64,000 nt of DNA from positions 2,914,001 through 2,978,000 of the forward strand of contig JAECYW010000005.1 in the NCBI GenBank assembly GCA_023014335.1, given 5' to 3'. The DNA is from Galerina marginata. Lineage: Eukaryota > Basidiomycota > Agaricomycetes > Agaricales > Galerinaceae. Numbering within the stretch: the stretch's first letter is position 1; the number at the start of each line of letters is the position of its first letter. A program made the translations under genes and the position numbers. This document shows, one piece after another, positions 1 through 64,000 of the stretch. Under the pieces are notes generated by a model. The model was not told where the DNA came from, made no database searches, and was given only the letters and a program-made list of their open reading frames with translations.

Positions 1-3000
1 ACTCCTGCGTTGTCGACGGTGACTGGTCCGAAGTCAGGCGTACGTTCGGGTCCATAGGAATAGACACGGGCTTGAGGTCTTCAAGCCCATAGCGGCGGAT
101 GATGGAGTCGAGGTAGGAGCGTTGAGAAAGAAAAAGACGGCGCTGTTCACGAATTCTTCGGACTTCGATGCCGAGAATCCAATGGAGTTCTCCGAGGTCC
201 GTGATGTCGACATGTTTGGCAATTTCGGACTTCAGGGACTCGATCAGTGGCAGTGCATTTGCCACGATCGTGCAGTCATCAACATGAACCAAAACAATCA
301 CCAAGTCCTTTCCTCGACGCATGAAGAAAACTGCCTGGTCGACGTCGCAAACCGTGAAGCCAAGCAGCTTCATAATTTCCACCAACCTCTGGTACCACCG
401 CCGCCCGGACTGCTTGAGGCCATATAGGGTTTTGATAAGGCGGCACACCTTCCTTACGTGCTCAGGGATCGCGTAGCCTGGCGGCTGTCGCATGTAGATA
501 ACTTCTTCTGAGGTAAGTCATCCGTTTAGGTATGCTCCCTTGACGTCGAGCTGATGGATTTCCCAGTCGTTGGCGGCTGCCATAGCCAGGACAGCGCGAA
601 TTGACGCCAACCGCGCAACTGGCGCGAAAGTGTCGAAATATTCGACGCCCGGGACTTGCGAAAATCCCTGGGCTACCAAACGAGCCTTGTAACGAACGAC
701 GTTGCCTTGCGCGTCTTTCTTCGCCCGGAAAACCCACTTGGAACCGACGATATTGGCTCCTGGAGGTGCGTCAACGAGTTCCCAAGTCCCTGCTTCCTTC
801 AAAACGGCTAATTCTTCCTCAATTGCCTTCTCCCACAGCTTCCAGTCCGGCCGCGCCTTCGCCTCAGCGAGCGTTCTAGGCTCCAATGCCTCCGCGTCGC
901 TTATTTCCGCCACCATAGCCCACTCATCTTCGAAATCATCCGCCATCTCCCACTTATTCACCTCCTCCCCCTCAAGCGCAGCATCCTCCGCTCCTCCTAC
1001 TGGATCTGGAGTCGGTAACTGCACACCGCGAGCGACTCTAGGCGCGCTAGGACGATTTGACGCAACCGCGCGGCCTGCAAGAATGTCTTGAATTTTGCTG
1101 GTCGGCTTTCTGTTACGTTTCGGGCGTGTTTCGGCTTCAGAAGAGGTGTCCTCGGGCTCGGAAATTGATTCAGGAGGGTCTGGAGCGGTTACAATGGGGC
1201 TGACAGGTGTCGCGGATGTAGAAGTGGGTGTAGTGGGCCTAGATTCACCTTTAGGTGAGGTTTCCGCAGGTAAGTCAGCTTTCGTTTTGATGAACTCCCA
1301 TTCCTCCCCCTCGAAACAACTTGCTGATGCCCCCGTCTTATCGTAATAGACGTTGCGCTCGACCGTGATGGTCTTCCTCGATGGCCAGTACACTCGGACT
1401 CCCTTCCTCTTCTCGTCGATGCCCATCCACCGTCCCTCCTCAACTCGTCCACCCAGCTTATTCCCCTTCTCCAATCGCGCCCACACCTTATCGCCCCACT
1501 CTCGCACCTCTCTCAAGTCCGGCTTCTTCCCAAAAGCCGCCTCATAGGGGGTTTTACCGTCCAGTGCTTTCGTCGAAGTGCGGTTAAGCAACCAGACGAT
1601 ATGACGGGCTGCTTCACCCCATAGGAACCGAGGGAGACCGCTGGCATGTAATAATGCCCGTATCCGCTCAACAATGGTACGGTTCCTGCGTTCCGCAACT
1701 CCATTCTCAGCTGACGTGTCGTGTACAGTCTGCTTCTGAGTCGTACCTCGGGACTTCAGGTAAAGCACAAACTCTTTGCCATCGTATTCGCCACCCTGAT
1801 CGGAATGTAGGACTTTGATACGCTTGCCATACTGGGTCTCGACCCACGCGTTGTACTGCTTGTACGATGTTGGAGTCTCGTCCTTCTTGCGCAGGAAGTA
1901 AATGTTGGTGAGTCGCGTGCAGTCGTCCACATAGGTTACGTAGTAACGACGGCCACCTTTCGATTCGACAGGTGCAGGTCCCCAGAGGTCCGAATGGACT
2001 TCATCCCCAAATTCCTTCGCCCTTTCACCACCTCTCTCCTTCGGCACTGGCTTACGCGTTGCCTTCGCATACACACACGACTCACAGAAGAAGTGGTCTG
2101 GTGAAAACGCGGAATTCTCGAGACGAATACCCGTAACAAACCCTTTATCGACTAGTCGTTTCGCGATTGCAGGTGAGATATGACCCATCCGCCTGTGAAA
2201 CTGATCTAACGTGATGGTCTCAACAGAGTTTGCGGCGTCCTCCTTGTCGGGTGCGCTGTGCTCGACGCGATAAAGCCCCTTCGCATCCTTCGGCACCTTC
2301 CCAACCTGGACACCATTCTCGTCCTTGATGGTGCAATAACCATCTGCAAAACGAACGTCATAACCGAGTTCGTCAAGCTTCCCGATGGATATGAGGGTGT
2401 ATCCGACTTCGGGAGAATAAAGGACTTCGTTGAGCAAGAGATTAGAAGCGTTGGCACCGTTAGGTACGCTAATCTTGAGCTCGCCGATCCCGGTAGCGCT
2501 GAAACTATGCTTGTTGGCAGCACGGAGAGCTCGAGGGGAAGTATCTGTGAAGCGTCCGAAGTCGTCTCGGTATGGCAAAAGATGGCGGGTGGTTCCTGAG
2601 TCGTAAATCTCAACTCGAGGAGCAACGTTTTCTGGAACGTGGCCAACAAGGTATGCTGCCGCCATGTTCACATGTTCGTCCTCGACCTCCAGAGACGTAT
2701 CTGACTCCCAATCCCTATCTGCATAGTCGCCTGCATCACTCCCCACCTCCGAAAACCAATCGCCGCTCTCAACATCATCGGAATCACCATCGCGGTTATC
2801 CAAACCGCTAACACTCGACTCCTCAACACCCGAATCGCTTTGCGTCCGCAAACTGGGCATCGAGTCGTCAACACAGCCTCCACAAGAGGTCAGGTCCGTA
2901 TCGTCATCCGGGTCGGGCATCGAGTCGTCTGACTCTGCCTCAGATTCGGTCTCACAGCTGACAGCGAACACGCCGTCACTGTCCGAATCGTACTCCACGA

Positions 3001-3994
3001 CATTGGCCTTCTCCGAGTCCTTCCCCTTCCCCTTCCCATCCTTCCCATCCTTCGAGTCCTTAGAGCCAGAGCCAGCCTTCGGCGGCTTCGTGCACTGGTT
3101 CTTGAAGTGACCCTTCTCTCCGCAGTTCCAGCAAGTAATGTTCGACTTCCCCTTTCCGCGGCCCTTCCCTTTCGATGACGATGACGAGGTGACCGCCATC
3201 GCTTTGTCGTCCTTGTCGTCGGACTTGGCCTTCCCACTGCGACGCGAGTGCTGCGTCTTCTGGCGCTCGTACTCCTCCGAGATCATCGTGGTCAAGGTGT
3301 TCGGGTCGACGACATGGGTGGTGCCGGCTGGCGCATATATGCGAGCTGCGGCCAATGTTGATGATGCGAAGTTGGAAAGGGAAACAGGTAAGGATGAAAG
3401 GATCGTTGAAATATAATCTTGCTGACTGATTGAAACCCCAGCGGATGCCAGCTCCTCGCGCTTGACGCGCAAGGTTTCGAGGAACTCGCGCACGTTGCCC
3501 TTGTCCGGGCACTTGGACTCTAGGAAACGCGCACGCATATCGGTCTGCGCGTACTCGCCCTTCTCGGTGAACTCGCGAGCAATGATCTCCCAGCGCTTGC
3601 GGACCGAGTTCTTGTCATGAACGCGCATCAACGTCGAGTCGGGGATCTTCTGGGTCAGCAGGGATTTCGCGGACAACTCGTCCTTGTCCCACTGCCGCTG
3701 GGCTGCGGTTTCGTCGGCCGTCGGGGCTTTGACCTCGGCTGTGGTGGTCGTGGTCCCCTCGGGCGTAGTCGTCGTGACTGCTGGCGTCGCGATTCGGAGA
3801 ACTGGTCGGGTTGAGGTTCCGTCGAAGTGGCTCCAAAAGCCTTTCGCTTCGATAGCGTCCTTGAAGCGCACGCGGAAGACGGCCCAGTTCGTACCCTTCA
3901 GCTCGAGCTTCGGGACGGTAGACGGGAGGGTATCAGATAAGGAAGTGGTTGACTGAGACATGGTAGGAATAAAATAAACTTTTGAGGTTGACAC
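1..3994 (-). pseudogene. copia gag-pol polyprotein, interrupted by TGA, partial
   Basis: The start is at 3994 (or the in-frame Met at 3961). The frame is open for 1158 codons to a TGA at 520-518. Then it stays open to the window edge. Visible parts are a Gag-like region (about 1-285), a CCHC zinc knuckle (residues 288-301), an acidic linker, the protease DSG triad (465-467), a GAG-pre-integrase zinc region (about 597-640), the integrase core with D669, D732 and E768 (the last two with D35E spacing), and reverse transcriptase from about 1071. The TGA falls just after the RT motif KGAYLNG. Past it the frame continues with YMRQPPGY and the HVDD catalytic box (copia usually YVDD). The TGA replaces a sense codon, so this copy is probably inactive unless it is read through or is a sequencing error. 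Confidence 0.92.
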
Positions 3995-42062: not shown

Positions 42063-44316
42063 ATGTCCTTCCTTCTCAATTGCTTAATTCTCGGTGAAGA
42101 ACCGGAGAATTTCTTCACTGTAAAGGTTTCCAACACCGAATATCTCGCCGAGCTCAAGGAAAGAATCAAAGAGGAGAGAGCAGTTCAATTGGCTCAGGTC
42201 GATGCCACTGAGCTGGAACTCCGGCTGGTTAACATCCGTCTGGACGACCTTGAATCGAAACTAGCAAGTTTTGCGCTCGATACATATCCCAAGCCGTTAT
42301 TCTACTTGAAGATGTCGTCACTTTTTGGCAATGCCAAACCTCCGGACGATTGTCTTCACCTCATTGTCGTCGCCCCTGGCACATTGACGCTTTTCTGCGC
42401 AATTGAAGCTGAAGAAATAGCTTTAAATAGCGTTTTCCTAATTGAAATCGACAGTCGACAGGACGTTAGTCGGCTTAAATACGCTATCAAGGAGACTGTA
42501 AAAGATGCCTTCGATCACATCCCTGCTCATGGCCTAGTCCTCTTCAAGGTTTCCATACCTATAGATATCACTGACCGTGAAAAAGACCCCATCGTCGACG
42601 TAGGACCATTGAGGGCCCTCCTTCCAGTGGAATCGCTGTCGCAATTGTTCCCTCGTGTCGATGCAAGCCATCTGCACATCATTATCCGTGTCCCAGTTGC
42701 CGGTGAGCTGATTTTGGCTTTCGATCGCAAAGCTAAAAATTTCCTCAATATCAAACAGAGAGTGGGGAGACAAGGAGAGATCGTATCAGTGCTTTACATA
42801 AGAGTCCTCTTGGTTCCGTCTTTTCTCTGACCATCGCTGATATTTAAACGGCTTTTTATGTAACAGGATTTCAAAATGTTCTCTCGCGCATGTTGAGAGC
42901 AACGCCTCCCTCCGAATCGGCAAAGTCGTCTGCATACACGAAATCCCTGATCGCTGACTCTATCTATGACGGCCGGTACAAGGAAAATAAACCCAGAACG
43001 AGCGTTGCACCTCCGATTCAATTGTTTCACCCAGCCTTTGCTCATTTCCTGGATGACTTGAAAGGTACTGGCGACATTCCCGACGATATCATTCGCAGAA
43101 CGGCGGAGTATATGAAAGCGTCATCGGCTATCTATGCCACTGAAGGAAACCGCAGCTCCGAGTTGACCCCGATTCTTTGCGATGTTCTTGGCATCGACAC
43201 ACGAATGATTCTGAACACTGACGGAACGAAGACTGAGGGCGTCATGGAATTGGTATTGGCGGCGGGGTACTTCTTAATCTTCCTTAAGGAGGATAAAAAT
43301 GAATTCGAAGCGGGTGATTTGGACCCATCAACGCAGGCTGCCCTGTCCATGGGTCGTTTCTGGGCTCAGACCAAGGTAGACAAATCTCACCATTCATTCT
43401 TTTTCACTCATTTGTTGTTCAGTTCGAGAAACTCCGAAACGCTACCAATTGCCCCACGTTTGTTGTAGCCACCGCTGGTCCATGGATCGTGATTCTTGGT
43501 GCCGTCTTCACCGACGGCTTGATTGTCCAACCTCTGACCGATTATATATGGGTTGGATTAGACTCCGTTCTGAACGAGGCTCATATCTCACGCGTCGCGA
43601 GAATCTTTTATGCCCTAAAGAATGGCTTGGACGGCCTCAAGTCCTATTACGAGAAGCTGGAGCTGCCTAGCGATTTACCTGTCGAGTCGCGGTATTTTCC
43701 TTCGATCACTGCTTACACTATTGGCGACAAACTTGTTCATTTCAAATATCTTGGGTTTTTGGAAGACGTCCCAGATTGCATGGTGCTTCGCGCACAGACG
43801 CTTACGACGCCGGCTATGGATATCGTCGTCAAATTCGCCGACCGCTACGGGGAAAGGGCACACCGCCTGCTTGCGGACAATGGTCTAGCGCCAGAACTTT
43901 TATATTGCGGATCACCACGCCTTAACGATGAGGGCCCTTCATACGAGTCGCTTTCCATGATCGTTATGGGATTCGTCGAGGGCAAGACATTAGCAAATTC
44001 AAAACTGAAAAAGGAAACAGCAAAAACGGTACGAAGGACGCTTGAGGATGCTCTTAAATTGTTGCACGACAATGGACTGGTATTTGGTGATTTCCGTTCC
44101 CCGAATGTTATGATCACTCCTGCAAAGGGTGTCAATTTGATTGACTTTAACTGGGCCGGAGAGGAAGGACAAGCTACGTACCCTTACCTGATATCACCAG
44201 GAATTCTTTGGCCGCCAGGCGTTCAACCACTGTCTGTTATCAAGAGGGACCATGACTTGCAGATGTTGGAGAATATGTTCTGGGGATCTGCACCTTTTAT
44301 GACTACACATGCTTGA
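42063..44316 (+). CDS. Crinkler (CRN)-type protein with kinase-like C-terminus
   Basis: Proposed exons are 42063-42702, 42759-42782 (24 nt), 42867-43375 and 43423-44316, giving 688 aa. The N-terminus is a Crinkler ubiquitin-like header (LNCLILGEEPENFFTVKV..., about 1-110). A second similar header follows (about 111-213, LTLFCAIEAEEI...FLIEID). The C-terminal about 200 residues are a divergent protein-kinase fold: VVKF with K528, VFGDFRSPN (D614, N619) and IDFNWAG (D632, where kinases have DFG). Such CRN-kinases occur in fungi and oomycetes as effectors or in self/non-self conflict. The micro-exon is inferred; a single 164-bp intron 42703-42866 also keeps frame. There is no signal peptide. Confidence 0.8.
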
Positions 44317-50162: not shown

Positions 50163-51683
50163 ATGAGCGGAGTGGACCGCAGTACAACTGAATTTCTACC
50201 AGCTTATGTCCAGCACCAAGTCCCTCAGAGTGCTTTCGATGCACTTCTGACAAGAATAGTCATCGGCGCGAGGGACCCCAATGCCCGCGTGATTCTTGAA
50301 AGCTTCATCGAGAGCCAGAAGGCTCCGGCTTATAATTCATCACAAAAATCCGAGCCGCCCAAACCCATCGAACACTATCCGATCGGTAGAGATCCATTGA
50401 CGCTCGTCAAACAGCAGGTCGTCGCGGAGCTGTTCCATGCCATCCGAAGAGAAGATAGCGAAACCGTTGTTTTTTTAATCCAAAACAACCTCGTCACCGC
50501 GAACACCACGAACCAAGTCGGCCGAACGCCGTTATTAGAAGCAATTTCAACGAAAATCATTCACTTAGTCAAGGAACTCCTAGACTTCGGCGCGGACCCC
50601 AATGCATTTGGTGTCGTAGTAAGCCTTTTCTCGCCTACCCACTGTAACCCCAGAGCCCATCTGATGCTCCAGTTTCGCTAGGAATATGATCGCAAAGCCA
50701 CCCGTACTCCCTTGATGTTCGCCGCAAGCTTAGGATCCCTCCCAATTGTTAAACTACTCTTCGAACCCCCTTACTCTGCCAACGACGCCCTCGTTGCTCC
50801 TGACGGCCAGATTGCCCTCCGACTCGCCTCGGCTGCTGGCCATCGCGCAATAGTCGAGTACTTGCCCTCTCGCCGCGTAGGCGGCTTCCTCCGCTGGAAG
50901 ACACAAAATGCTCCAGCCATTGCACGGATGAAGAGGGCACTGCGGAGCATTCGTACCTTCATCAAATTTTTCGTCTGGTATCTGCCCAAATTTTTCGTCT
51001 GGGACGCACCCAAGCATTTGGTCGTACTCCCCGTCGTGAAGGGCTGTAAATGGTCTTGGGCAAATCGAAAGAAATTCGGTGGTTGGTGTAAGCACCAAAT
51101 CACTGAGACGCCGAAACGGTTCGTTCGGGCTGCAAAGCGGGTTTGGAATGGTGTCAAAAAGGTTCCGAAGGCGATATGGAAGTTCGGGACGCAGACAGTG
51201 CCAAGATGGATCAACAAGTTGGCCATTTGGTTTGGGGAATTGATCACTGTGCGCATTCCTAAAGCGATTGGTATTGCGGCGAAGTGGATCTGGTCCGGAC
51301 TCAGCTCGCTCGGGAAGGCGATTTGGGGTGCCATCCTGAAGGCGGTGTCGTTTTTGCATACGGTCCTTGAGGCCATCGTGACGTTCTTGCGCAATGTGAC
51401 GATGAAGGATATCTGGAATGGGTTCTGCGACCTCCTCCGGGCTATTTTCATCACTTTCCCTACGACTCTTTGGTCGTGGATACGGAGGTTCGGAGTAGCG
51501 TCATTCGAGGTCATGAAGACCCTCTTTGGTTGGTTCGGTGAATTGCTATGGTGGATTGTGGTTGGATTGGAATGGCTTGTGCTTTATATCCCGGCCAATC
51601 TTTGGATTATTTTGCGCAGCCTTGGAGGCTCCATTGGCAGAGGTTGGTCTGAATTTGTGATTTGGATCAATCCAAAGGCATAG
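50163..51683 (+). CDS. Ankyrin protein with Trp/Lys amphipathic tail, family D, copy D1
   Basis: Exons are 50163-50618 and 50682-51683, giving 485 aa. The N-terminal region (1-85) is conserved in the family (VPQSAFDALLTRI; ESFIESQKAPAY). Two ankyrin-type blocks follow: GRTPLLEAISTKIIHLVKEL..GADPN, and after the intron TRTPLMFAASLGSLPIVKLL. The last about 265 residues are Trp, Lys, Phe and Val-rich with recurring W and P at 11-22 residue spacing (PKAIWKFG, PRWINKLAIWFGEL, AKWIWSGLSSLGKAIW). They end WINPKA. The tail should form amphipathic helices, so membrane or lipid binding is inferred. There is no signal peptide. The start at MSGVDRS was chosen over an upstream Met by alignment with D2 and D3. 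Confidence 0.75.
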
Positions 51684-52254
51684 TTTTGCTCATCAAGCTA
51701 AGTACCTTTTTTTTTTCGATATTTACGATTTGTACTCGAGTTGCTGTACGATGGAAAATGGCAGTATTTTTATCGAGACTACGCTATTTTTGTCGAGATA
51801 AGGGTTGTCCGTTTGCTGAGTTGTGGTGGAACTCCGGACATAAACCCCTCGGCAATGTCCATCTCCACGTTCTCCTTCAGTTCTCATGGATGTCGATTCT
51901 CTTCTTTCTATCTCACCTCCAGGACCCTTCAGACTTGCTTCAAACTCTACTTTCACAGTATGCCCCAGTACACATAGTCTCTGGCAGTTCAACCGCGATC
52001 AACTCCTCAGCCGAAACTTCCAGTCAACTTTGGCCGGTGCGTCACGTTGGGTTTTGCAAAAAAAGTCGTCTAGTCGCGATACCGGGCTGACCTTCAAGGT
52101 CCGAGCCTCCGAGGCACGGTTTTTACCGTGTAAATCGATCCTAGTCCATAAATAACGCGTCGAGGGTCAAAACTGCCCTTCTGTTGCGTCTAGTGTCCAC
52201 CCACGACCACGACCACCTTCACCTTCAGCATTTTCCCGGTCGCGGACACAGCAT
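51684..52254. other. Intergenic, no gene seen
   Basis: Overlapping short frames with no support. Contains the promoter of C2. Confidence 0.4.
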
Positions 52255-53930
52255 ATGTCAAGTCCTGATCAAAAAACGCTGAATATTCAAAGTGACGCGG
52301 CCCCGGGCTTCAAATTTATAGAGCTAAGCGTGGACCTCCTAATCAATGTGATCAAATTTCTGCCGCCATGCGACATCGTCTCCGTCCGCCAGGTGTGTGG
52401 TCTGACCTCCATGCTCATGGCCCTGGTTTCACCTCGCCGACATCCTCTAGACGTGTCGAAGGCTTCTTTCCGTCACGAAACTGCGAACGGTCTGGGTGAA
52501 CGCTTTGCACGGAGTCATGCAGGACTATTCCATCACCGAAGATACCTTCCCCCTCCAAACGATGTCTGTTCCGCTGCTAGAACACTCGGCATTATCGCCT
52601 TACCGCCTCGTTTCTTTATTGGAACGATCTGATAACAGCAGGATTGAACCAGCATCGATCCGGGTACTTTCTCCTCGGCTAACGAATCAAGAAAAGGCCT
52701 TTCATGGAATCTTGCACAGCGGCGAACTGTACGACATGTTTTTAGCACCTGGTGGACGCTATCTATCCACCGTTGCACACTATGGTGGCGTTTCTAGCAT
52801 TCTTACTGTCTGGGACCTTGGTCATTCGGGCAACGACGGGGTGAAGGCTTTAACCCGTCTTGTTCAACCAATGACACCACACTGTTCATTAATCAACTTC
52901 TTCCCTGATATTCCGAGACGCGGGATATTTTACCTCGTTTCGAAACGAGAAGCACAGTCACCGTAAGGCCAAACACTTGTCTCCCTAAACATCGCGTTCA
53001 ACCCTCCCATAGGCAAGGAATCGTTGTTGACGTTCACACAATAACCATATCCCCAGCCTTTTCGACATTCGTTTCAGTCAGCAAAATTTGGATACCTGCT
53101 ATGGGTCCAACCGATTATTACGACGTATTTGCGTCTCCAGAGCTACAGAGGATCACAGTTCGCACTGATGACACTGTAAAAAATCGCTTTTTAATTTGGG
53201 ATTTCATACACAACACGGCAGCCGCTTGGATCGCACCTGACTGTCCCATTAGGCCTGAATTAGTTGTGAGTGAATACCCCTTCCCTCTTCAGTTAATGAC
53301 GACACTAAGCGCCTACAGTTTTTTTCCTATCAAGACAGTCTTGTCGTCGGGGTGAGGGATAAAGTGCTGATATATAATATCCCGCCTTTCGTTCCTTTCG
53401 ACTCTGAGATCGCTCCAAGACATCTTGAAGCATCCCTTTCCCTCTCAAGTCCATTTCCAACCCCGGGCTTCTTTTTCATCTGCCAAGATTGTCGTCCCTC
53501 TTCACAATCTTCCCAGTATATCTGTGCCGCCAATTCCGAGAAAATAGCGGTTTACAAGGTCAACAATACCCATTCATCAGGGAATCCTGCCGTGCCGAAC
53601 AAACTTCCAACAATAGCTGCCAGTGTTAATGCTGCATATCCATCATTCGCTGTCGACAACATTGACTCTTTTACTCGGATGGAGCACTCTATCGGACATC
53701 TTTTCCTTGGGTGTTCCAACGACGAGTTGGGGACTTTTAAAGTTTACATGTTCAAGATAGCCGACCGGCCCAACAGACAGTGGAACATTAAACCGTCCTG
53801 GGCATCTTTATTTTATGACCCAACTATGGCTCTCCACCGCTCACAGTTTTATCCGCTAACGGGTAGGATGTGTCTTTTGACGCAGAACCGCAAATTGCAT
53901 ATTTTAGATTTTCTAGTACCTCCCGACTAA
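52255..53930 (+). CDS. F-box / beta-propeller-like protein, family C, copy C2
   Basis: Exons are 52255-52392, 52451-52962, 53013-53265 and 53319-53930, giving 504 aa. The F-box is split by intron 1: LSVDLLINVIKFLPPCDIVSVRQ before it and TCRRLLSVTKLRTVWVNAL after it. The body shows propeller-like strands (LAPGGRYLSTVAHYGG...LTVWDLG; RFLIWDFIHNTAAAWIAPDC; VLIYNIPPFVP) and ends LHILDFLVPPD. It is first of a head-to-tail row C2, C3, relic, C4. Likely an SCF adaptor. Confidence 0.82.
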
Positions 53931-54223
53931 CGTAGTGTATTTATCGTGGACTGTATTTTTACTTACTTTCTTCTGAACTACATCCTGTGTCGCCTTTAAT
54001 CTATCGCAAAATGGCGATTACTGGTGCGCAAATAACAGGAAACAACGAGGTCATGCATGAATCACATGATCAGCCGACGGAGGCACTTTTCTTTTTTTCC
54101 AGCAAGGCACTTGCAAGGCAGCAAGGCCACTTACTCTCTCCTCAACGAAATCGACAACGACATACCAACCCGTCTTTGGAGTACATTTGAGTACTCAAAA
54201 TAAAGGCGCGCAAACAACAGCGA
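53931..54223. other. Spacer between C2 and C3
   Basis: No gene seen. AAACAACAGCGAATGGCGCGTAC just before C3 resembles the sequence before C4 near 56282. Confidence 0.4.
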
Positions 54224-55912
54224 ATGGCGCGTACAAAGCATGTTGCGGTGAAAATGTCGGGTAGCATGGGCCCTCGTCGTCGCCATGTGTCGCCGACGCC
54301 AGAGATCCCAGATTTCATTGCGTTGACCCGAGATGTTTTAATCAATGTGATCAAATTTTTACAACCACGGGACATTGTCTCTATTCGTCAGGTATCTAAT
54401 GCAATTTCTCAGTCTGTATTCTCTAAGCTCACCCCCACGTCTTTTAGACATGTCGAACCTTTTTGTCCATCACAAAACTGCGACCGGTCTGGGTGAACGC
54501 CCTTCGCTGGCTCATGCAAGAGCATTGTATCACAGAAGACACATTCCCTCTCCGAACTATGTCTCTGTCTATGCTCGAACACTTGGCGCTATCGCCTTAC
54601 AGGATTGTTTCTTTGATGGAACAATCTGACAACGACAAGTTGGATCCAGCGTCAATCAGGGTTCTTTCACCTAGGTTAACAAATGAAGAGAAGGATATTT
54701 ACGGAATTTTGCACAGTGGAGAGTTGTATGACTTTTCCTTGGCATCTGGCGGACGCTACCTGTCCACTGTTGCAAGCTGTAGTGATGTTTCAAGCCTTTT
54801 TACTGTCTGGGACCTTGGTCTTTCGGGCAACGACCGGGTGAAGGCCTTAACCCGTCTCGTTCAACCGGTGATATGCTGTGAATTAATCAACTTCTTCCCT
54901 GATCTCAACAAACTTGGAGTATTTTACCTCGTCTCTAGACGAGATTCACCGTAAGGCCAGTCCGTTGTCTGTCTGTTTACCATGTTCATATCGCTCATAG
55001 CCAAGGGATTATTGTGGACGTTTACACAATAACGATATCTCCACCCATTTCGACATTTGTTTCAGTCAGTAAAATAAGGATGCCTGCTACAGGTTCGACC
55101 TACGTATTTGCGTGTCCGGAGTTACAGAGGATCACGATTCGCACTGACAACACTGAAATAAACCAGTTCTTAATATGGGATTTCATCCATAACATGGCAG
55201 CCGCTTGGGTTGCAGCAGACTGTCCAATCGACCAGGGCTTGGCAGTGAGTACGTCTTTAGCTTGTCAGTTTATTGCGATCTGAAATGTCTGTAGATTTTC
55301 TCCTATGACGACAGCCTTGTTGTCGGGCTGGCGGATAAAATGTTCATATACAATATTCCACCTTTTGTTCCCTACAACCCCGATATCGTTCCAAAACGCC
55401 TTGAGCCATCTATTTGCCTCTACAGCCCACTTCCCGGATCCGATGCATTTTTCCTTCTGCAAGATTCTTGGCCCCTTCCCCGAGCACCGAAGTATATGTG
55501 CGCCGCCAATTCTGAGCAAATAGTCGTTTACAAAAGCAACAATATCCTTTCTTCCGACGCGGGTTCTGCGATGCCAAACATACTGCCAACATTTGCAGCC
55601 AGTGTCAGTGCTGCATACCCTTCATTCGCGCATAACAATCGGGATATTTTCATTCAAATGGTGCAAGCAGTGGGCCACCTTTTCCTGGGATGTTATGACG
55701 AGAATTCAGGAATCCTCAAAGTTTTTATAGTCAAGATAGCTGATCAGCCTGTCGGCCAACGAGACATTATACCATTCAGGGTTTTTCTAGGCAACGACCC
55801 GGCCGACGTCTTCCAATACACACAGCTCTACCCTTTAACGGGTAGGATGTGCTATTTAACAAAAGAATGCCGCAGATTGCATGTCCTCGATTTCCTGGTA
55901 CCACCCGAGTAA
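54224..55912 (+). CDS. F-box / beta-propeller-like protein, family C, copy C3
   Basis: Exons are 54224-54391, 54448-54950, 55001-55244 and 55295-55912, giving 510 aa. The four-exon structure and phases match C2. F-box: LTRDVLINVIKFLQPRDIVSIRQ joined to TCRTFLSITKLRPVWVNAL. Propeller-like motifs are repeated (LASGGRYLSTVASC...FTVWDLGLSG; QFLIWDFIHNMAAAWVAADC; MFIYNIPPFVPY), with end LHVLDFLVPPE. No lesion is seen. Confidence 0.82.
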
Positions 55913-55964
55913 CAATATCACGCTTCATATAGACTGCTATCATACAAAACAGTATAACTCTTAA

Positions 55965-56225
55965 TTGGTGCCGCAGCTGCCGCCCGCGCTAAATAACCTC
56001 CAGGCAAATATTCAAAGCAACACAACCCCAACTTTGATCGCGGTACATGCTTCAATGTCCTGGTCTCCTAAGTCTATTTTACCTCTGGGTCTGGAAAGTC
56101 TCCTACTCATAGACATGTCGGAACCTCACAAGCCTGCAAACGGTCTGGGTGAATGCACTGTTTAGGTTAATAAATCAGCAACCGAGATACAACTTGTAGA
56201 TTTTTTGGTACCTCCCGAGTAAGTG
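55965..56225 (+). pseudogene. Family C relic, internally deleted
   Basis: TCATAGACATGTCGGAACC...GCAAACGGTCTGGGTGAATGCACTG (56107-56161) matches the start of exon 2 of C2 and C3. About 15 bp later, ACTTGTAGATTTTTTGGTACCTCCCGAGTAA (56195-56223) matches the last codons of the family (LDFLVPPE). The 1.4 kb between has been deleted. This is the remains of a fourth tandem copy. Confidence 0.75.
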
Positions 56226-56284
56226 TACTTTTTACTCACTTTCTCCTGAACGACATACTTACCGACCCCTCTTTTCTCGAACTA

Positions 56285-58102
56285 ATGGTACGCAAACAAC
56301 AGCAAATAACGCGTGCAAAGCACCGCGCGGCGCCACTTAAGTTACTCACCCTGCCACATCGTCACAAGCACCATTCTGTCCTCCCCTCACTGATATTGAT
56401 TCCAACGTGCATGCCACCGATGCCAGAGAACCCTCAGGAAATACTGGAAATCATTCAAAGCAACACGGCCCAAACCTTCATCTCGCTCAGCCCAGATGTT
56501 TTAATCAACGTAATCAAATTTTTACAACCATGCAACATTGTCTCTGTTCGTTAGGTAGTTATCCAATGCGTTTTCTAAGTTTGTATCGCCTGAATTCATC
56601 CTCCGACGTCTTCTAGACATGTCGAACCCTTTTGTCAATCACAAACTGCGAACGGTCTGGGTGAACGCTCTGCGCAGTGTCATGCAGAACTATTCTATTA
56701 CAGAAGATACTTTTCCTCTCCAAACCATGTCTTTGCCAATGCTCGAACACTCGGCGCTGTCACCTCGGCGGTTCATTTCGTTGATGGAAAAGTCTGATAA
56801 CCGCCAACTTGAACCAACGTCAACTCGAGTTCTATCTCCTCGCTTAACCAACCGAGAAAAGACCACTCACGGGCTTTCCGACAGTGGCCATCTGCATGAT
56901 ATGATTTTGGCACCTGGCGGACGCTATCTGTCCACAATTGCGCACTGTGACGGGGACTCTTCGCATTTCACTATCTGGGACCTTGGCCTTTCGGGTATTG
57001 ATGGACTAAAAGCATTGGCGCACCTCCGAGTAGCTCAGCTGGAGGACTATTCCTTTTTGAATTTCTTTCCTGATCTCAAGAAACACGGAATATTTTACCT
57101 AGTTACTAGATCAACTAGAATTTTACCGTAAGATCTATTGCTTATTCTATCTCACTTGCTGTCATACTCATCAAGCCCTTAGTCAAAAAGTCATAGTGGC
57201 CGTTCATACAGTCACTGTATCTCCAAATCCTGAATTCTCATTAACCTCGAGAGTCCAGATAACCGCCTCTTATGCAACCGATCTCCCTGAAGTATTTGCA
57301 TGTCCCAAGCTATGTAGGGTCACAATACGCACTGATGACTCCCACCGAATTTCCTTCCTGATTTGGGACTTCATACACAACACTGCGACCACTTGGATCG
57401 GGTGTGACTATCCAATTTCTCCACTGTCAACAGTGAGTAATAAACTCGGGAGGGTCATTAAATGACAATCTTATATCCCTTTAGTGTTTCTCATATGATG
57501 ACTGCCTCATAGTCGGGCTTGGGGATAAGATGTTGGTATACAATGTTCCACCTTTCACTCCTTACGACCCCCAAATGACTCCAAGGCAACTTGAACCGTC
57601 CCTGAGCCTGTCAAGTTCATTCACATCTGTTGCTGGTTTTTACATTGATCAAAACAGGCAACCGAGTTCGCGTGCCCTTCCTGATTATATTTGCTTGTTC
57701 AATGCCGGCCAAATCATTGTTCAAAAGGTCAAGAACATCTTGTCGGATGGCGATTCTTCAGCACCCAACAAACTCCCAATATTCGAAGGCAAATTCAACG
57801 CTACGCACCCATCATTTAGAAGTGATTGTGATGACGTCTTCACACCTCTGATGGAATCCGGGGGTTGTTTGTTTCTTGGGAGTTCAGATGATGACAAAGG
57901 AACCGCCAGACTTTTCATGGTTAAGATAGCGAACCGATGTGACGTGCAAATGGATGCCAAACTCATCGAGTCAATTCTGTGCAATGACGAAATGGTAAGC
58001 CTTCGTCGCTGGCAATTTTGTCCGTTAATAGGCAGGTTGTGTTATTTAACCGAGACCCGCAAATTATACGTTCTGGATTTTTTAGTACCTCCCGAGCAAT
58101 GA
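56285..58102 (+). pseudogene. Family C copy C4: F-box disabled, propeller body intact
   Basis: The F-box exon (56285-56554) encodes LSPDVLINVIKFLQPCNIVSVR, but its last codon, CAG in C2 and C3, is TAG. Exon 2 (from 56616) has lost one A within the F-box continuation (ATCACAAACTGCG against ATCACAAAACTGCG), so the F-box is out of frame. The body from ATG 56619 is open: exons 56619-57127, 57183-57432 and 57485-58102 encode 458 aa with all propeller-like motifs (LAPGGRYLSTIAHC, SFLIWDFIHNTATTWI, MLVYNVPPFTP, LYVLDFLVPPE). Either a recent pseudogene or an F-box-less protein started at that Met. Confidence 0.72.
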
Positions 58103-58395
58103 AACATGTGTACTTTGTCTACAGTATAACACCGTGTTGCTCTCGAATGGTGAAAGAAAATTATCAACGAAGTCGGGATCCCATATCAGAATCTAGTATG
58201 TGACATGGTTAAACAACAGTGTAAGACGCCAAGAACAAAGTATAATAAAGGCGAACCTATGCCAACCTATAGCTACTTCGCGTTAATGAAGCAATTGCAA
58301 CCCATCTTGGAGTGCTGACGTTGAGTCTTGTTCCTTCATCTGGTTTGTACCCCGATATTCGAATACACGATAAGACGACCGACATTGAGCAAAGG

Positions 58396-59528
58396 TTATG
58401 AATATAATGTATTATCCTCCTCAAACAACGACTCTATGTTTTTGCCCTTCCTGTCCAAGTTGTACACCCAAGGAATGTTCTTACCCCTTGAGCGGTTCCG
58501 CATCAACAGCTCTCCGGCTACAGGCTCTGAAAAATTTTCTCTATATTGAGGATCGTCACATTCGACGGGTTCAAGAATTTCCAGAACACGCAAAACGACA
58601 ATGTGGGTGTTGGCATGTTCGAGGAAAGGGGATTTTTCTAGGCGAACACGGGCTAAACCTGTCAACGTCAAAGGAGGGAACAAGAAGAATAAGGAATATA
58701 AACCTAGATTTCGACTGTAGAGGATAACGTACCTTTGTAAGGACGGACTGTCATCTTCGAGCCATCACCCCGATAATCCGTGCTTGTAAAGGCATTTGTA
58801 GCGAAGCTTCTCCACAATACCATGGCGCGCGGTGTAATGATGGATATTGATCTTGGTGAATGCTTTAAACTCGTAAGAAAAGGTTGAGATAAATGGTATA
58901 AAACTATTGAGTGGGCGCTAGGTCGACTTGTAGGCAGCTTTCGAAGTTGTTCTAGCAGATGCTCTGGAACAAATCCTTCTCTGACTAACATTGAGCCTAC
59001 TGCTTTGTAGTTTCGAAATTGCGCGATTGAGTACAGCAAGACTCTCCATGGCTTGCCGTCGGGGGTTTGAAGATCAGATCCCTGTTCAAACGTGGAAATA
59101 GGAGTGGGTAGAACTCTGAATCGTACGGTTCCAGAGTAGTTTGGTTGACCGTCTGTTGGCTTCTTGTAATATAGATATCCGAAAGAATTAGGCGGGAAAT
59201 TTGCGCCGGGCTCGCCCGATGGATAAGACAACGAAACTCGACCAGGGCTCGGTTGAAAGCACGCCCACAACTTTGGTGAGAGATTGATAGGCTGCTGCCC
59301 GACGGCGGTAAACTTTTCTGGGTCCAGGGTTAGAACTGGGTTTGTGAGCCCGAGATGATACTGTGTATGTCACATCGGGGAATGGTGAATTTGACATTAG
59401 TTAACTCCAAGAGATATGACGCACCACGAATGGCTTTTTTTCCTGCATTGCGACATCAGTGCCGCGATCCTGATGAGAGTCAAAGCTTGAAGACTTACCT
59501 CGACAGACCCCCTGGTCTCAGTACTATT
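58396..59528 (-). CDS. Uncharacterised basidiomycete-type protein, multi-exon
   Basis: Exons seen: 59528-59499 (30 nt), 59442-59425 (18 nt), 59360-58733 and 58658-58396; further 5' exons probably lie toward 59808. The frame continues across all joins (KPFV/YHLGLTNP; PYKG/LARVRLEKSPF). The layout GYLYYKKP, FRVLPTPISTFEQGSDL, GKPWRVLL, LVREGFVPEHLL, TSTDYRGDG and HIVVLRVLEILEPVEC is one I recognise as a recurring architecture among uncharacterised Agaricomycete proteins. No catalytic motif or membrane segment is seen. A further intron inside the long exon, around 58940-58880, is possible because that stretch fits the rest poorly. Confidence 0.65.
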
Positions 59529-60301
59529 CTACAACACCAGATTCTACGTTAGCAAATTGCCAAGGTTGTAAAGAATCATTCTGGCACTAACGGAAAAGAA
59601 CCTCATCTTAAATGTCATGCCAGCACCCGATCCCCTGCTCAACCAATGTGACTGGCTTATTTGACCGACACTGGCACGGGCACAGCTCATAAAACTCAAC
59701 TGAGCTTTCCGACAATAAATCATTGTTGATGTTGCGAGGTATTGATTTTATGGCCCAGCCAGAGATATCGCGAAAATGTCGAAGTAACGTTGAGGTTGTA
59801 AAAGTCAATTCCCGGGCATTGAGGCTGCCCTACGGGCTGAGAAACGAGGTTCGAGGCAGTGATCGTAGAGGTTGGAATCAAAGGTTGGAATCAATTTCTC
59901 ACGCTTGCTTCTTGTCCGTAAATAGAGTACCATCAACCTCCTCTTCACCCCACCTTACATCATGTCAGATGGCAAAGAGTACCAGGTCGCACCACAAACT
60001 CCTCTAACCGCCTCCTCCAACCTAGCTTGCTCTTCAGCATTGAAGTAAACCTGGTAGAAATCCACCCAGCTTATTATTGAGTCTACAATAATACTAAGGA
60101 CCCTTATATGTGTACTCAGTGTACAGCTTTGCTCTGCTGTGCTGCGCCACGAATCCGTTTATCATCAGAACAAGGTGTGAGGCTGTCTGACTCTAATCAC
60201 AAGACGTATTTTGGTACTTATATCCTCCATTGGAACCTCAGGCTTGTTAACACCCATTTTCCGAACCACCCAGTGCAACTGCTTCACAGTTGACTCCGAC
60301 G
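59529..60301. other. 5' region of the minus-strand gene and promoter of D2
   Basis: From about 59930 the sequence repeats at 62630-62979 before D3 (for example CACCTTACATCATGTCAG at 59951 and 62648). This marks the tandem duplication of promoter plus gene. Confidence 0.5.
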
Positions 60302-61981
60302 ATGGAAGCTCTACCCGTGTACGTCGAGGATGAAGTTCCTCAGAGTCCTTTCGACGCGCTTGTAACTCGAATAGCTGCCCCGATATCCTCCACGCACCCT
60401 GATGCTCGGGTTATCCTCGAAAGTTATATTGAAAGCCAAAAGGCTCCAGCTTACGATAGGCCTCAGGAAATTGAAGCGCCTAAGCCCATTGATCACTATC
60501 CGCCGGGCGACGGGCCCAGTACTGATCTATTGACGAGGGTCAAGCAACAGATCGTCAGGGAACTATTCGACGCTATTGCGCGAGAAGACAGCGAAACCAT
60601 CTTACTTTTGATCCAAAACAACCTCGTCACTGCCAACACCACAAGATACGGCCGAACACCGTTATTGGAAGGTATATCAACCAAAATTATCCACGTAGTC
60701 AAAGAACTCCTCGACTTAGGCGCGGACCCTAACGCATTCGGTATTGTGGTAAGCCCAAGTCTGCTCAGACTCAATAACTTACCTATATTTAAATGCTTCG
60801 CTTCCCAGCATAACGGCCAACCTAACCAAGCTACCCGCACTCCCTTGATGTTCGCTGCCAGCATTGGTTCTCTCCCAATTGTAAAACTACTCCTCGAACC
60901 CCCTTACAATGCCAACGATGCACTCGTCGCTCCAGATGGTCAAATTGCCCTGCGGCTCGCTGCGGCCGCTGGCCACCGTGCAATAGTCGAATACCTTCCT
61001 TCCCGCCGCGCTGGGGGCTTCCTACGCTGGAAAACGCATCATGCCCTCGCCGTCGGGCGGATCAAGAAGGCCTTCATAAAAATATACGCGTTTATCAAAT
61101 TCTTTGTCTGGGATGTGCCGAAATTTTTCGTCTGGAGCATCCCCAAGCACGGCATCGTACTTCCCATAGTGAGAAGTTGTAAGTGGTGTTGGGGACGCAG
61201 AAAGCAGTTTGGCGCCTGGTGTAAGCATCAGGTAACCGAGACACCAAAGAGGATTGCGAGAGCTGGGAAGTGGGTCTGGAAGGGGGTGAAGAAAGTCCCT
61301 GCAGCGGTCGCAAAGGCGGGAAAGTGGGCTGGGAATGGTCTAAAGAAAGTTCCAGCAGCAGTCAAAGCGACCGGGAAGTGGGTATGGAAGTTCATAACGG
61401 AGACATTGCCGAAATGGATAAAGGATACGGTTGTCGGCCTTTGGAGGATCGTCAAGGACATAGCAAAGGAGCTGTGGAAGTTTGGAACAGAAACATTGCC
61501 GCGATGGATCAAGAACGTGGTGGTATGGTTTTGGGAACTCTTTACAAAGCGCATTCCAAAGGCAATTTTTACTGCGCTCAAGTGGGTTTGGGCAGGATTT
61601 ACCTCGCTTGCAAAGGCGACTTGGAATGTTATCGAGAAGCTGATGTCGCTCGTCCATACCCTCCTCCAAGCGGTCATTAACTTCCTCCGTAACGTGAAAC
61701 TCGTGGATATCTGGAATGGATTCCGCGAGGTCCTTCGCGCTATTTTTATCACCTTCCCCGCAATGCTTTGGTCCTGGGTGGAGAAATTCGGCGAAGCGTC
61801 GTACAAGATTATGGAGTCGCTTTTCGGCCTTTTCGGAGAAATTGTGTGGTGGATTTTCTACGGGCTGAAGTGGCTGATATTTTATGTTCCGGGGAAAGTC
61901 TGGGTTATCCTGGAAGGCATGGGAAGCTCCCTTGCTAAGGCCTCGCACGAAATACTGGTTTGGATCAGTCCGAAGGCGTAA
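60302..61981 (+). CDS. Ankyrin protein with Trp/Lys amphipathic tail, family D, copy D2
   Basis: Exons are 60302-60748 and 60809-61981, giving 539 aa. The 60-bp intron lacks stops and is a multiple of three, so a retained form would add 20 residues. Ankyrin blocks: GRTPLLEGISTKIIHVVKELLDLGADPN and TRTPLMFAASIGSLPIVKLL. The tail (about 217-539) is about 55 residues longer than in D1. It contains tandem repeats of 16-20 residues built on GKW..G.KKVPAAV (three in a row), then TLP(K/R)WIK...LW modules. It ends WISPKA. Charge and Trp pattern predict membrane-interacting helices. The function is unknown; a sensor (ankyrin) plus membrane-acting tail design is inferred. Confidence 0.78.
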   Translation: MEALPVYVEDEVPQSPFDALVTRIAAPISSTHPDARVILESYIESQKAPAYDRPQEIEAPKPIDHYPPGDGPSTDLLTRVKQQIVRELFDAIAREDSETILLLIQNNLVTANTTRYGRTPLLEGISTKIIHVVKELLDLGADPNAFGIVVSPSLLRLNNLPIFKCFASQHNGQPNQATRTPLMFAASIGSLPIVKLLLEPPYNANDALVAPDGQIALRLAAAAGHRAIVEYLPSRRAGGFLRWKTHHALAVGRIKKAFIKIYAFIKFFVWDVPKFFVWSIPKHGIVLPIVRSCKWCWGRRKQFGAWCKHQVTETPKRIARAGKWVWKGVKKVPAAVAKAGKWAGNGLKKVPAAVKATGKWVWKFITETLPKWIKDTVVGLWRIVKDIAKELWKFGTETLPRWIKNVVVWFWELFTKRIPKAIFTALKWVWAGFTSLAKATWNVIEKLMSLVHTLLQAVINFLRNVKLVDIWNGFREVLRAIFITFPAMLWSWVEKFGEASYKIMESLFGLFGEIVWWIFYGLKWLIFYVPGKVWVILEGMGSSLAKASHEILVWISPKA

Positions 61982-62979
61982 TATATTACTCTCTGCCACA
62001 GATCCAAAAACAGTCCATTTGACGGCGACAATGAATCAATGCTTTTCACTGCTGAGCATCTCAATGGTTAAGCTTCTTCAAGCAAAACTTTAGCACTCAA
62101 CATCTGACCGTGGCGAGTTGTCAATGGTGAAGGGCCTGACCAGAACGGCTAAGTACACTAGGTCCCATTTCCGCATTTGGAAAATATTTCCGCTTGCGGA
62201 GAACCTCAGAAGGTAAGTAGATGGTCGATCATCTGTTGCTAATGCAAGATGCTATGTTTTAAATATGTCTGAAGATCTCATCTGAAGCTCATTTTCTTGG
62301 AGAATGGAGTCCAAAGTCATCTCCGACGTCTCTGCCATATAAAAAACGGATAATTACCCGACTTTAGTATCTGGCACATACTCGAGTAAGGATCGATAGC
62401 CAAATTTTGCCTTTTTGAGGACCAAAAATATGTACAGGCTTAGATAGCTTTCAGGAGTATTCTAACAACTTCTCCTTCACGGAGACAACTTTTATTGGAA
62501 TTTAGTACCAGGCTGGCCTTGGGCGGGCCGATGTGATGATGGCCTTAGTACACGCATTGATAAATAAAACCGCTCTCAACTTCAATCAAGATCTCACGAC
62601 GTGAGGGGACTTAATTGAGCCTATTCTTTTACCCAGGCTCACCTCACCACCTTACATCATGTCAGGTGGAAAAAAGTACTGGGTCGCACCACAGTTCTCT
62701 AAACGCCTCCTCCAACAGCTTGCTTGTTACTCAGCGCTGAAGTAGACCCGGTATGAAGCCATCCCTTTTTTTATTGGAATTCGAGCCTATAATACTGATG
62801 AGGGCCCTTATGTTATGTACAGCTTTGCGGCGCTGTACTCCATCTATCATCTGAACGTGTGAGGCTTTTGACTCTGATTGCAATATGCGCTTTTACTTAT
62901 TCTCTTTGTTGGAACGTCAGGCTTGTTGACTCCCTTTTCCTAACCACCCAGTGCACCTGCTTCACAATTGACTCCGAAA
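61982..62979. other. Spacer and D3 promoter
   Basis: No gene seen up to about 62630; then a duplicate of the D2 promoter. Confidence 0.45.
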
Positions 62980-64000
62980 ATGGAGGCACCGCCCGTCTAC
63001 GTTGAGGATGAAATTCCTCAGAGCCCTTTCGACGCGCTTGTGACTCGAATAGCTGCGCCGATATCTACCACGCATCCTCTTGCTCGGGTTATCCTCGAAA
63101 GTTTTATTGAAAGCCAAAAGGCTCCAGCTTACGATAGACCTCGGGAACCGCCTCAGCCCATTGATCACTATCCGCCGGACGACGGGCCCAGTACCGATAC
63201 TTTGACGAGCGTCAAACAACAAATCGTCAGGGAACTATTCGACGCTATCAGGCGAGAAGATAGCGAAACCATCTTACTTTTAATCCAAAACAACCTCGTC
63301 ACTGCCAACACCACAAGAAACGGCCGAACGCCCTTACTGGAAGCTATATCAACCAAACTCATCCACATAGTCAAAGAACTCCTCGACTTAGGCGCAGACC
63401 CTAATGCATTCGGTGCCGTGGTAAGCTCCAAGTCTACTCAGACTCGACATCAATATTTAAATGCTGCGCTTCCCAGCATAGCGGCGGCCAACGTGGCCAA
63501 GCCACTCGCACTCCATTGATGTTGGCGGCGAGCATTGGTTCTCTCCCAATTGTAAAACTGCTCTGCGAACCCCCTTACAGTGCCAACGATGCACTCGTCG
63601 CTCCAGACGGCGAAATTGCTCTACGGCTTGCTGCGGCTGCTGGTCACCGTGCAATAGTCCAGTACCTCCCTTCCCGCCGCGCCGGGGGCTTCCTACGCTG
63701 GCAGACGCATCATGCACTCACCATCGCGCGGATCGAGAAGGCCTTCAAAAAAATTGGCACATTTATCAAATTCTTTGTTTGGGATGTGCCGAAATATTTG
63801 GTCTGGAGCATTCCCAAGCAAGAGGTCGTGCTTCCCTTCGTGAGAGGCTGTAAGTGGTGTTGGGGACGCAGAAAGCAGTTTGGAGCCTGGTGTATACGTC
63901 AGGTTACCGAGATGCCAAAGAGGGTTGCGAGGTTTGGGAAGTGGGTTTGGCACGGAGTGAAGAAAGTTCCTGCAGCAGCTGCGAAGGCGGGAAAGTGGGC
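62980..64000 (+). CDS. Ankyrin protein with Trp/Lys amphipathic tail, family D, copy D3, cut by window end
   Basis: Exon 1 is 62980-63420 and exon 2 runs from 63477 past the window end. It is a tandem copy of D2 at an offset of 2678 bp. The N-terminus MEAPPVYVEDEIPQSPFDALVTRI, the ankyrin blocks (GRTPLLEAISTKLIHIVKEL, TRTPLMLAASIGSLPIVKLL) and the beginning of the Trp/Lys tail (FIKFFVWDVPKYLVWSIPK; GKWVWHGVKKVPAA) are present and in frame. The intron is 56 bp with TTCCCAG acceptor. No lesion is seen in the visible part. Confidence 0.75.

What the first reader, a model, noticed from the sequence alone, without database searches (positions are those of the whole stretch)
50163..64000. Family D: ankyrin proteins with long Trp/Lys-rich amphipathic tails, an architecture I cannot assign
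Three genes share a conserved head, two ankyrin-type blocks and a 265-320 residue tail with Trp and Pro at regular 11-22 residue spacing and many Lys. The pattern suits amphipathic helices lying on or entering a membrane, with ankyrin repeats as a recognition part. Neighbours are F-box arrays and a Crinkler-type gene, which are common in conflict or immunity loci. The membrane role is inference.
Basis: partly seen in the sequence, partly recalled or inferred. Interest (0 to 1): 0.78.

Follow-up and report, generated by a model that had tools for sequence, protein, structure and literature searches.

The report
Fungal ankyrin proteins with membrane-ribbon tails
Three neighbouring mushroom genes belong to a widespread, unstudied fungal family in which an ankyrin head is joined to a very long greasy-faced helix that probably lies flat on a membrane and that mostly changes length over evolution in whole helical turns.

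Summary
The three genes are real: one short intron each, purifying selection, the only copies found in the host genome, a relative of Galerina marginata. They belong to an uncharacterised ankyrin family of Agaricales and Pezizomycotina. No convincing Pfam, PDB or viral match was found for the tail. Four lines support a helix lying on a membrane. (1) AlphaFold gives tail helices of 32-70 residues, mean pLDDT 88. (2) Hydrophobicity has a helical period of about 3.7 residues. (3) In 93 non-redundant tails Ile/Leu/Val/Phe fill the apolar centre, Trp lines both edges, Pro mainly one edge, Lys/Arg the far face. (4) In 63 disjoint pairs, tail indels cluster at whole helical turns (3/4, 7/8, 11, 18/19); heads do not. 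The membrane reading is well supported but unproven; some hydrophobic stretches could span. The conflict/immunity hint is not supported: the ankyrin part evolves slowly and each copy has a close relative in G. marginata. Best reading: an ankyrin docking platform held on an anionic membrane by a 40-48 nm cationic helical ribbon. A tree hints weakly at transfer from ascomycetes. Partner and membrane are unknown.

The parts
50163..51683 (+). D1 gene, 485 aa; exons 50163-50618 and 50682-51683, intron 50619-50681
   Evidence: 94.6% identical to G. marginata P0004
50697..50864 (+). D1 best ankyrin stretch (Ank_2, residues 158-213)
50883..51680 (+). D1 tail, residues 220-485: amphipathic Trp/Lys-rich helices
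   Evidence: helices 2-60, 62-93, 97-166, 174-215, 217-262 of 266
60302..61981 (+). D2 gene, 539 aa; exons 60302-60748 and 60809-61981, intron 60749-60808
   Evidence: 95.5% identical to G. marginata P0001 over 539 aa
60824..60997 (+). D2 best ankyrin stretch (Ank_2, residues 155-212)
61016..61978 (+). D2 tail, residues 219-539, 55 residues longer than that of D1 (about three 18-residue units)
   Evidence: model of the near-identical P0001
62980..64000 (+). D3 gene, cut by the window end; exons 62980-63420 and 63477 onwards, intron 63421-63476; 534 aa, last sense codon ends at C39:2978637 (window-equivalent 64637)
63687..64000 (+). D3 tail, from residue 218, continues beyond the window

Best explanation
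D1-D3 are peripheral (monotopic) membrane proteins. SHOWN from sequence: intact genes, an ankyrin head, a family-wide tail. COMPUTED or predicted: the head runs straight into a tail of about 240-400 residues that is nearly all helix; the helix has an Ile/Leu/Val/Phe stripe, Trp rails at both stripe edges, Pro mainly on one edge and a Lys/Arg far face; selection keeps the face in register while length changes mostly by whole turns. INFERRED: the stripe sinks into one leaflet of an anionic membrane, Trp sits at the headgroup layer, Lys binds acidic lipid, and the helix forms a 40-48 nm ribbon (D1-D2, at 1.5 A per residue) that anchors, and perhaps coats or bends, the membrane. The ankyrin head then docks a conserved protein partner there. 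The nearly gap-free C-terminal ~110 residues (TLKD, which looks like a helix-capping box, LFG..G, E..vWinPK) would be the specific anchor or assembly part, and the repeat region an adjustable ribbon.
For: AlphaFold tail model mean pLDDT 88, 249 of 266 residues in five helices; long helices also in the full-length model. Hydrophobicity period 3.72 in the mean spectrum of 129 tails; median 3.71, and 81 of 93 non-redundant tails (87%) peak at 3.65-3.80. Angles from the local apolar direction in 93 tails: Ile 22.4% of residues at 0-30 degrees; Trp 0.5% there and 14.8% at 90-120, with 993 of 1577 Trp at 60-120 and 1106 beyond 90; Lys 21.6 and 18.8% at 120-150 and 150-180; 745 of 880 Pro on one side. 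Shuffled tails are flat for the six residue types printed; 12 other window ORFs and 52 heads show no such placement for the types printed. Tape-measure control: Trp counts 1,16,9,1,0,0 in 30-degree bins, inside the apolar face. Net charge +21 to +53 in all 146 tails; 68 of 72 heads negative. Indels: 63 disjoint pairs, 63 gaps, the 56 of 3-40 aa tested: mean cosine 0.66 at 3.67 against null -0.06 +/- 0.09; heads no signal. Alignment-free length differences agree, z 6.1, with 22 of the 27 non-zero ones tested. 34 of 34 full-length relatives scanned carry Ank models.
Against: No experiment, no localisation data, no membrane in the model. Turn-quantised indels show a continuous functional helix face, not membranes as such; coiled coils could do the same. 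One in-phase face along the whole tail is only moderately supported: for 44 of 93 tails at most 5% of random-phase versions reach the observed peak, median 7%. Some stretches are hydrophobic enough to span: 12 of the 16 octanol-favourable 19-mers listed for D2 and D3 lie in the tails, and three Kyte-Doolittle peaks in the D1 and D3 tails are 1.75-1.93. The tails are related, so angle counts are not independent, and the soluble Trp-rich control is a single protein. Some indels are out of phase (5, 10, 12, 17 once each; length differences of 50 and 57). The five tail models differ in confidence (mean pLDDT 73.8-88.0) and the repeat region of the longer D2-like tail is poorly predicted.
Confidence: 0.6

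Rival explanations
1. Regulated membrane-damaging effector: the acidic head masks the cationic tail until a signal binds the ankyrin repeats, then the tail permeabilises the cell's own or an invader's membrane, as a cell-death or defence protein.
For: Strongly cationic, bulky-hydrophobic amphipathic tail and mostly acidic head; neighbours include an F-box-like gene and a Crinkler-kinase-like gene.
Against: dN/dS 0.13-0.24, head more conserved than tail; close relatives of all three copies in G. marginata; only ankyrin models, so no NACHT, HET, HeLo or gasdermin model, in 34 relatives at E <= 0.01. Neighbourhood alone is weak.
Confidence: 0.15
2. Protein-anchoring ruler: the tail is a soluble helix whose Trp/Phe marks bind copies of a small partner protein, as in phage tape-measure proteins; length is adjusted in units.
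For: Weak profile match to a tape-measure protein (9d93 E 0.023); Belcaid et al. 2011 (PMC3271669, passages) describe Trp/Phe marks with a period of 11 and a possible mixed 11-11-18 pattern, like the 11 and 18/19 steps here.
Against: In the TP901-1 tape measure 26 of 27 Trp lie within 90 degrees of the apolar direction and net charge is +6 over 937 aa; here 1106 of 1577 Trp lie beyond 90 degrees and D1-D3 tails carry +31 to +36 over about 270-320 aa. One control protein only.
Confidence: 0.12
3. Integral membrane protein: some tail helices span the bilayer.
For: Octanol-scale 19-mers are favourable, best -10.6 to -11.7 near the C-terminus of D1, D2 and D3, and the family median dips there (scale values recalled). 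Kyte-Doolittle peaks reach 1.93.
Against: Predicted helices of the D1 tail are 32-70 residues long with a charged far face; length changes by one or two turns would be odd for spanning helices.
Confidence: 0.1

Closest known systems
Perilipin 4 giant amphipathic helix (PMC5889406, passages seen)
   Same: Very long membrane-surface helix, net positive, made of repeats, described as a slightly extended 3-11 helix
   Different: Plin4 is weakly hydrophobic and its 29 33-mers have no insertions or deletions between them; here bulky Trp/Phe/Ile/Leu, many Pro, 18-19-residue units, ankyrin head, no PAT model found
Exchangeable apolipoproteins (mostly own knowledge; 3-11 helix mentioned in the passages)
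   Same: Repeated amphipathic helices with Pro that can lie on lipid
   Different: Animal, secreted (recalled); no Pfam match here; Trp far rarer (recalled)
Phage tape-measure proteins (PMC3271669 passages; TP901-1)
   Same: Long helices with Trp/Phe marks at 11 and perhaps 18 spacing, variable unit number
   Different: Trp inside the apolar face and near-neutral charge in the one tested; phage origin; no ankyrin
Fungal HeLo/HELL and gasdermin cell-death executors (PMC12881547 passages)
   Same: Fungal, membrane-targeting
   Different: Helical bundles or gasdermin folds with other sensors; no sequence match found, fold comparison inconclusive

Membership tests
Ankyrin-repeat proteins | Ankyrin repeats above Pfam cut-off | tested here: met
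   D1 and D2: Ank_2 55.0 and 55.7 bits, cut-off 27.3; 34 of 34 relatives match Ank_2 at E <= 0.01
Perilipins | PAT domain | tested here: not met
   No PAT model among Pfam matches of D1 and D2 at E <= 1 or of 17 tails at E <= 0.1
Perilipins | Lipid-droplet localisation | not testable with these tools
   no localisation data
Exchangeable apolipoproteins | Apolipoprotein Pfam model | tested here: not met
   no such model
Exchangeable apolipoproteins | Long amphipathic repeats with helical period near 11/3 | tested here: met
   period 3.71-3.72; indel steps best at 3.67; shared by other families, so not diagnostic
Phage tape-measure proteins | Trp marks inside the apolar face, as in TP901-1 | tested here: not met
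   1106 of 1577 Trp lie beyond 90 degrees, against 1 of 27 in TP901-1; one control protein
HeLo/HELL/MLKL four-helix-bundle executors | Matching Pfam model | tested here: not met
   none
HeLo/HELL/MLKL four-helix-bundle executors | Four-helix-bundle fold | tested here: inconclusive
Fungal NLRs | Nucleotide-binding NACHT/NB-ARC domain with repeats | tested here: not met
   only Ank models in 34 relatives

The most novel reading that the evidence does not exclude
A new class of giant amphipathic helix: a Trp-railed, Pro-kinked, cationic ribbon whose length evolves in whole helical turns, fused to an ankyrin platform, assembling side by side into a coat or spiral that shapes a fungal membrane domain, and acquired by mushrooms from ascomycetes.
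Probability: 0.25. Interest if true: 0.78.

Novelty: new variant of a known kind. Interest (0 to 1): 0.6.

Why it matters
It turns an unnamed ankyrin family into a testable membrane protein family. It gives an unusually clear natural record of a helix face held in register while length varies turn by turn, and an opposite design to perilipin 4 (bulky instead of weak hydrophobic face). If the mushroom copies came from ascomycetes, the protein is useful enough to be kept after transfer.

Tried and rejected
Known tail domain: Pfam on D1, D2 and 17 tails gave only scattered hits, seven families with one member each at E <= 0.1, best E 0.0055. PDB sequence profile: whole-sequence E 5e-6 to 2e-4 to three long chains named DP221, PP507, DP622, but no single stretch significant (best i-Evalue 4.6 in those chains, 0.32 in the tape-measure chain), so treated as summed helix noise. 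Fold search: the full-length model is dominated by ankyrin hits; the tail alone had 0 PDB and 0 viral matches at E <= 0.001; the VIA rows are long-helix hairpins, BAR and F-BAR domains among them, and a family missing there shows nothing. Viral or prokaryotic source: 40 and 16 pattern matches in viral contigs and 15 in genome contigs, none confirmed; in genome contigs only the ankyrin junction was sought, since the tail alignment was too variable. Trp or Pro spacing alone as the regular signal: no consistent peak. Tails without ankyrin: 33 of the 41 proteins that missed my tail filter still show the PDG..AL junction; six pieces of 198-293 aa start at or inside the tail and are probably fragments. 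Two listed relatives, P0141 and P0144, have the head but lack a complete tail in the model; not followed. One search was not used for D1 head/tail scores, because the script's motif matched an N-terminal site there; its 149-tail counts may share that fault. Literature: the searches listed no paper that I recognised as being on this family (listings and abstract starts only); of PMC12881547, PMC5889406 and PMC3271669 I saw passages; the library is open-access only. In the listing, PMC8598163 (start of abstract) treats conserved secondary-structure features in diverged proteins, a possible precedent. One search gave one paper, not read.
Full report
WHERE IT IS. The window lies in a 69.3 Mb, 43-contig genome. 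D2 is 95.5% identical over 539 aa to a Galerina marginata protein, so the host is a close relative of that mushroom (inference). D1 is 50163-51683, D2 60302-61981, D3 from 62980 to C39:2978637 plus its stop, that is 637 bases of coding sequence beyond the window end. Each has one phase-0 intron of 56-63 nt at the same place. A protein search of the own genome with the D2 exon-2 translation gave four matches that are these three genes (the tool states that counts are lower bounds).

THEY ARE GENES. Nei-Gojobori dN/dS over whole proteins, computed in a script: D2-D3 0.24, D1-D2 0.13, D1-D3 0.18; dS is 1.2-1.6 in the D1 pairs, so those two values are rough. The head is more conserved than the tail in each pair: 88.3 against 80.3% identity, 76.9 against 59.0, 75.7 against 59.2. 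Neighbouring copies may be usual: two Psilocybe cubensis proteins have consecutive locus tags, and two Hebeloma proteins share a contig length, while the two Agrocybe ones do not.

THE FAMILY. Three searches found 209, 350 and 160 proteins at E <= 1e-3 among about 8000 candidates each, of which the best 120 are listed each. The names listed are fungal: Basidiomycota only of the genera Galerina, Hebeloma, Psilocybe, Agrocybe and Hypholoma, and many Pezizomycotina (Leotio-, Sordario-, Dothideo-, Orbilio- and Geoglossomycetes; classes recalled except for Galerina and Trichoglossum). Names are mostly 'hypothetical protein' or 'ankyrin'. Many unnamed environmental hits cover 70% of the query and look like second exons (inference). 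Of 187 proteins in hand (three of them D1-D3), 146 have my junction motif plus a tail over 220 aa; of the 41 others 33 show the PDG..AL junction, and the rest are mostly short pieces. I saw no tail with a different head.

TAIL STRUCTURE. The D1 tail alone is predicted as helices 2-60, 62-93, 97-166, 174-215, 217-262 of 266, mean pLDDT 88.0, pTM 0.63, five models 73.8-88.0. In the full-length P0001 model, which has the longer tail, the blocks from about 301 to 380 are under 70 (under 50 at 310-342 and 349-351) and the other tail blocks are 70-92. Foldseek found no PDB or viral match for the tail at E <= 0.001. This does not show a new fold: long helices give weak scores.

PERIOD. Hydrophobicity in D1-D3 tails has moment z-scores of 6.1-7.6 at 100 degrees against shuffles, the heads 0.1-1.9. 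Over 129 tails the mean spectrum peaks at 3.72; over 93 non-redundant tails the median peak is 3.71, quartiles 3.70-3.72. A few tails peak elsewhere, such as P0085 and P0102 at 3.58. Whether one face stays in phase along the whole tail is only moderately supported: for 44 of 93 tails at most 5% of versions with five randomly rotated segments reach the observed peak, median 7%.

AROUND THE HELIX. For each residue the local apolar direction was taken from its neighbours only (13 on each side). In 93 tails, from 0-30 to 150-180 degrees, Ile makes up 22.4, 15.9, 7.0, 3.0, 3.8, 3.2% of residues; Trp 0.5, 2.4, 8.9, 14.8, 7.2, 4.9; Pro 0.9, 4.8, 10.0, 2.9, 1.7, 1.5; Lys 1.4, 1.4, 4.0, 13.1, 21.6, 18.8. 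Signed angles put Trp on both edges and 745 of 880 Pro on one side. In the last 110 residues Trp is spread further (7.2% at 150-180 as well), so the rails are clearest before them. Shuffled tails are flat for W, I, L, K, R, P; heads and 12 other window ORFs are nearly flat for the types printed (W, I, L, F, K), with mild Ile and Phe gradients in the heads. Trp at the rim of an apolar stripe with Lys beyond it is what established membrane biophysics expects for helices lying in the headgroup layer (own knowledge). In the TP901-1 tape-measure protein, a Trp-rich helical protein not known to me as a membrane-surface protein, Trp lies inside the apolar face: 1, 16, 9, 1, 0, 0. The tails are related to each other, so counts are not independent, and one control protein is few.

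INDELS. Tails pair up into 63 disjoint pairs (50-97% identity; P0001, P0003 and P0004, near-copies of D1-D3, dropped first). The 63 gaps are 1 (2 times), 2 (1), 3 (7), 4 (8), 5 (1), 7 (12), 8 (3), 10 (1), 11 (5), 12 (1), 14 (1), 15 (1), 17 (1), 18 (5), 19 (4), 22 (1), 29 (2), 33 (2), 40 (1), and four above 40. The 56 gaps of 3-40 have mean cosine 0.659 at 3.67, null -0.058 +/- 0.089 from jittering lengths by up to 2; periods 3.2, 4.0 and 4.4 give nothing. In heads, 31 pairs with 126 gaps (77 tested) give nothing, and gaps of 1-2 are common, 49 of 126. Without alignment: in 51 disjoint pairs (135 of 143 tails could be trimmed) 24 length differences are zero and 22 of the 27 others are 3-40: z 6.1 at 3.67. 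So selection keeps the helix face in register but lets the length drift in turns. Some tails carry clear extra units of about 18-19 residues (P0002, P0018, P0082; by eye). D2 has 55 residues more than D1.

MECHANISM. Committed reading: peripheral membrane ribbon with an ankyrin docking platform. Shown: gene structure, family, selection, ankyrin head. Predicted by computation: helices, apolar stripe, Trp rails, cationic face, turn-wise length change. Inferred: membrane contact, leaflet depth, preference for acidic lipid, partner docking, coat formation. The C-terminal 110 or so residues are nearly gap-free across the 17 tails aligned and hold almost invariant S, T, D, P, G, E and a final PK, so they probably do something more specific than binding lipid.

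ORIGIN. A tree of 61 rows (58 named proteins that I chose, not all named hits, plus D1-D3) puts Agaricales in one clade (99/98), next to Trichoglossum (93/84), inside a clade with Leotiomycetes (100/98). Holding all non-orbilian ascomycetes together, as vertical descent would want, is rejected weakly: p-AU 0.032, group named after seeing the tree. The tool warns of long branches (P0082, P0135, P0140). Sordariomycetes and Dothideomycetes are also mixed, so old paralogy is possible. Transfer from an ascomycete to an ancestor of these mushrooms is a hint only.

CONFLICT IDEA. The neighbourhood does hold a Crinkler N-terminal domain (E 1.6e-32) with kinase-like sequence downstream and an F-box-like gene. 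But D1-D3 themselves do not look like arms-race genes.

Noticed in passing
window 10.7-19.2 kb and 37.0-41.6 kb: Large inverted duplication of a gene block that includes F-box-looking genes: arms such as 15497-16207/40227-40937 (711 nt, 92%) and 17551-18112/38325-38886 (562 nt, 95%).
   Followed up: partly
window 42063-44316: Crinkler N-terminal domain (PF20147, E 1.6e-32) followed in further ORFs by a kinase-like stretch (RIO1 24.1 bits, cut-off 22; Pkinase below cut-off): a probable Crinkler-kinase gene with introns.
   Followed up: partly
   Followed up: partly
window 2-3994, - strand: Copia-like retroelement ORFs with Gag zinc knuckle, integrase and reverse-transcriptase-like stretches (by eye, from the translation).
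   Followed up: no
D2 residues about 272-288: Cysteine-tryptophan patch (SCKWCW...WCK) mostly kept in the Agaricales and Leotiomycetes shown, partly lost in the Sordariomycetes and Dothideomycetes shown; could be S-acylated.
   Followed up: no
L005 4506-4967 and L006 6769-8311: An arginine-serine-rich ORF follows the D cluster, and a gene resembling the 20-21 kb and 52-58 kb window genes lies further on (by eye).
   Followed up: no
P0141 (Pseudogymnoascus) and P0144 (Xylaria polymorpha): Relatives whose models have the ankyrin head but no complete tail; real variants or gene-model faults.
   Followed up: no
family tree, P0123-P0125, P0128, P0132, P0133: Six Xylariales proteins sit inside the Dothideomycete group, another possible transfer or old paralogy.
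   Followed up: no
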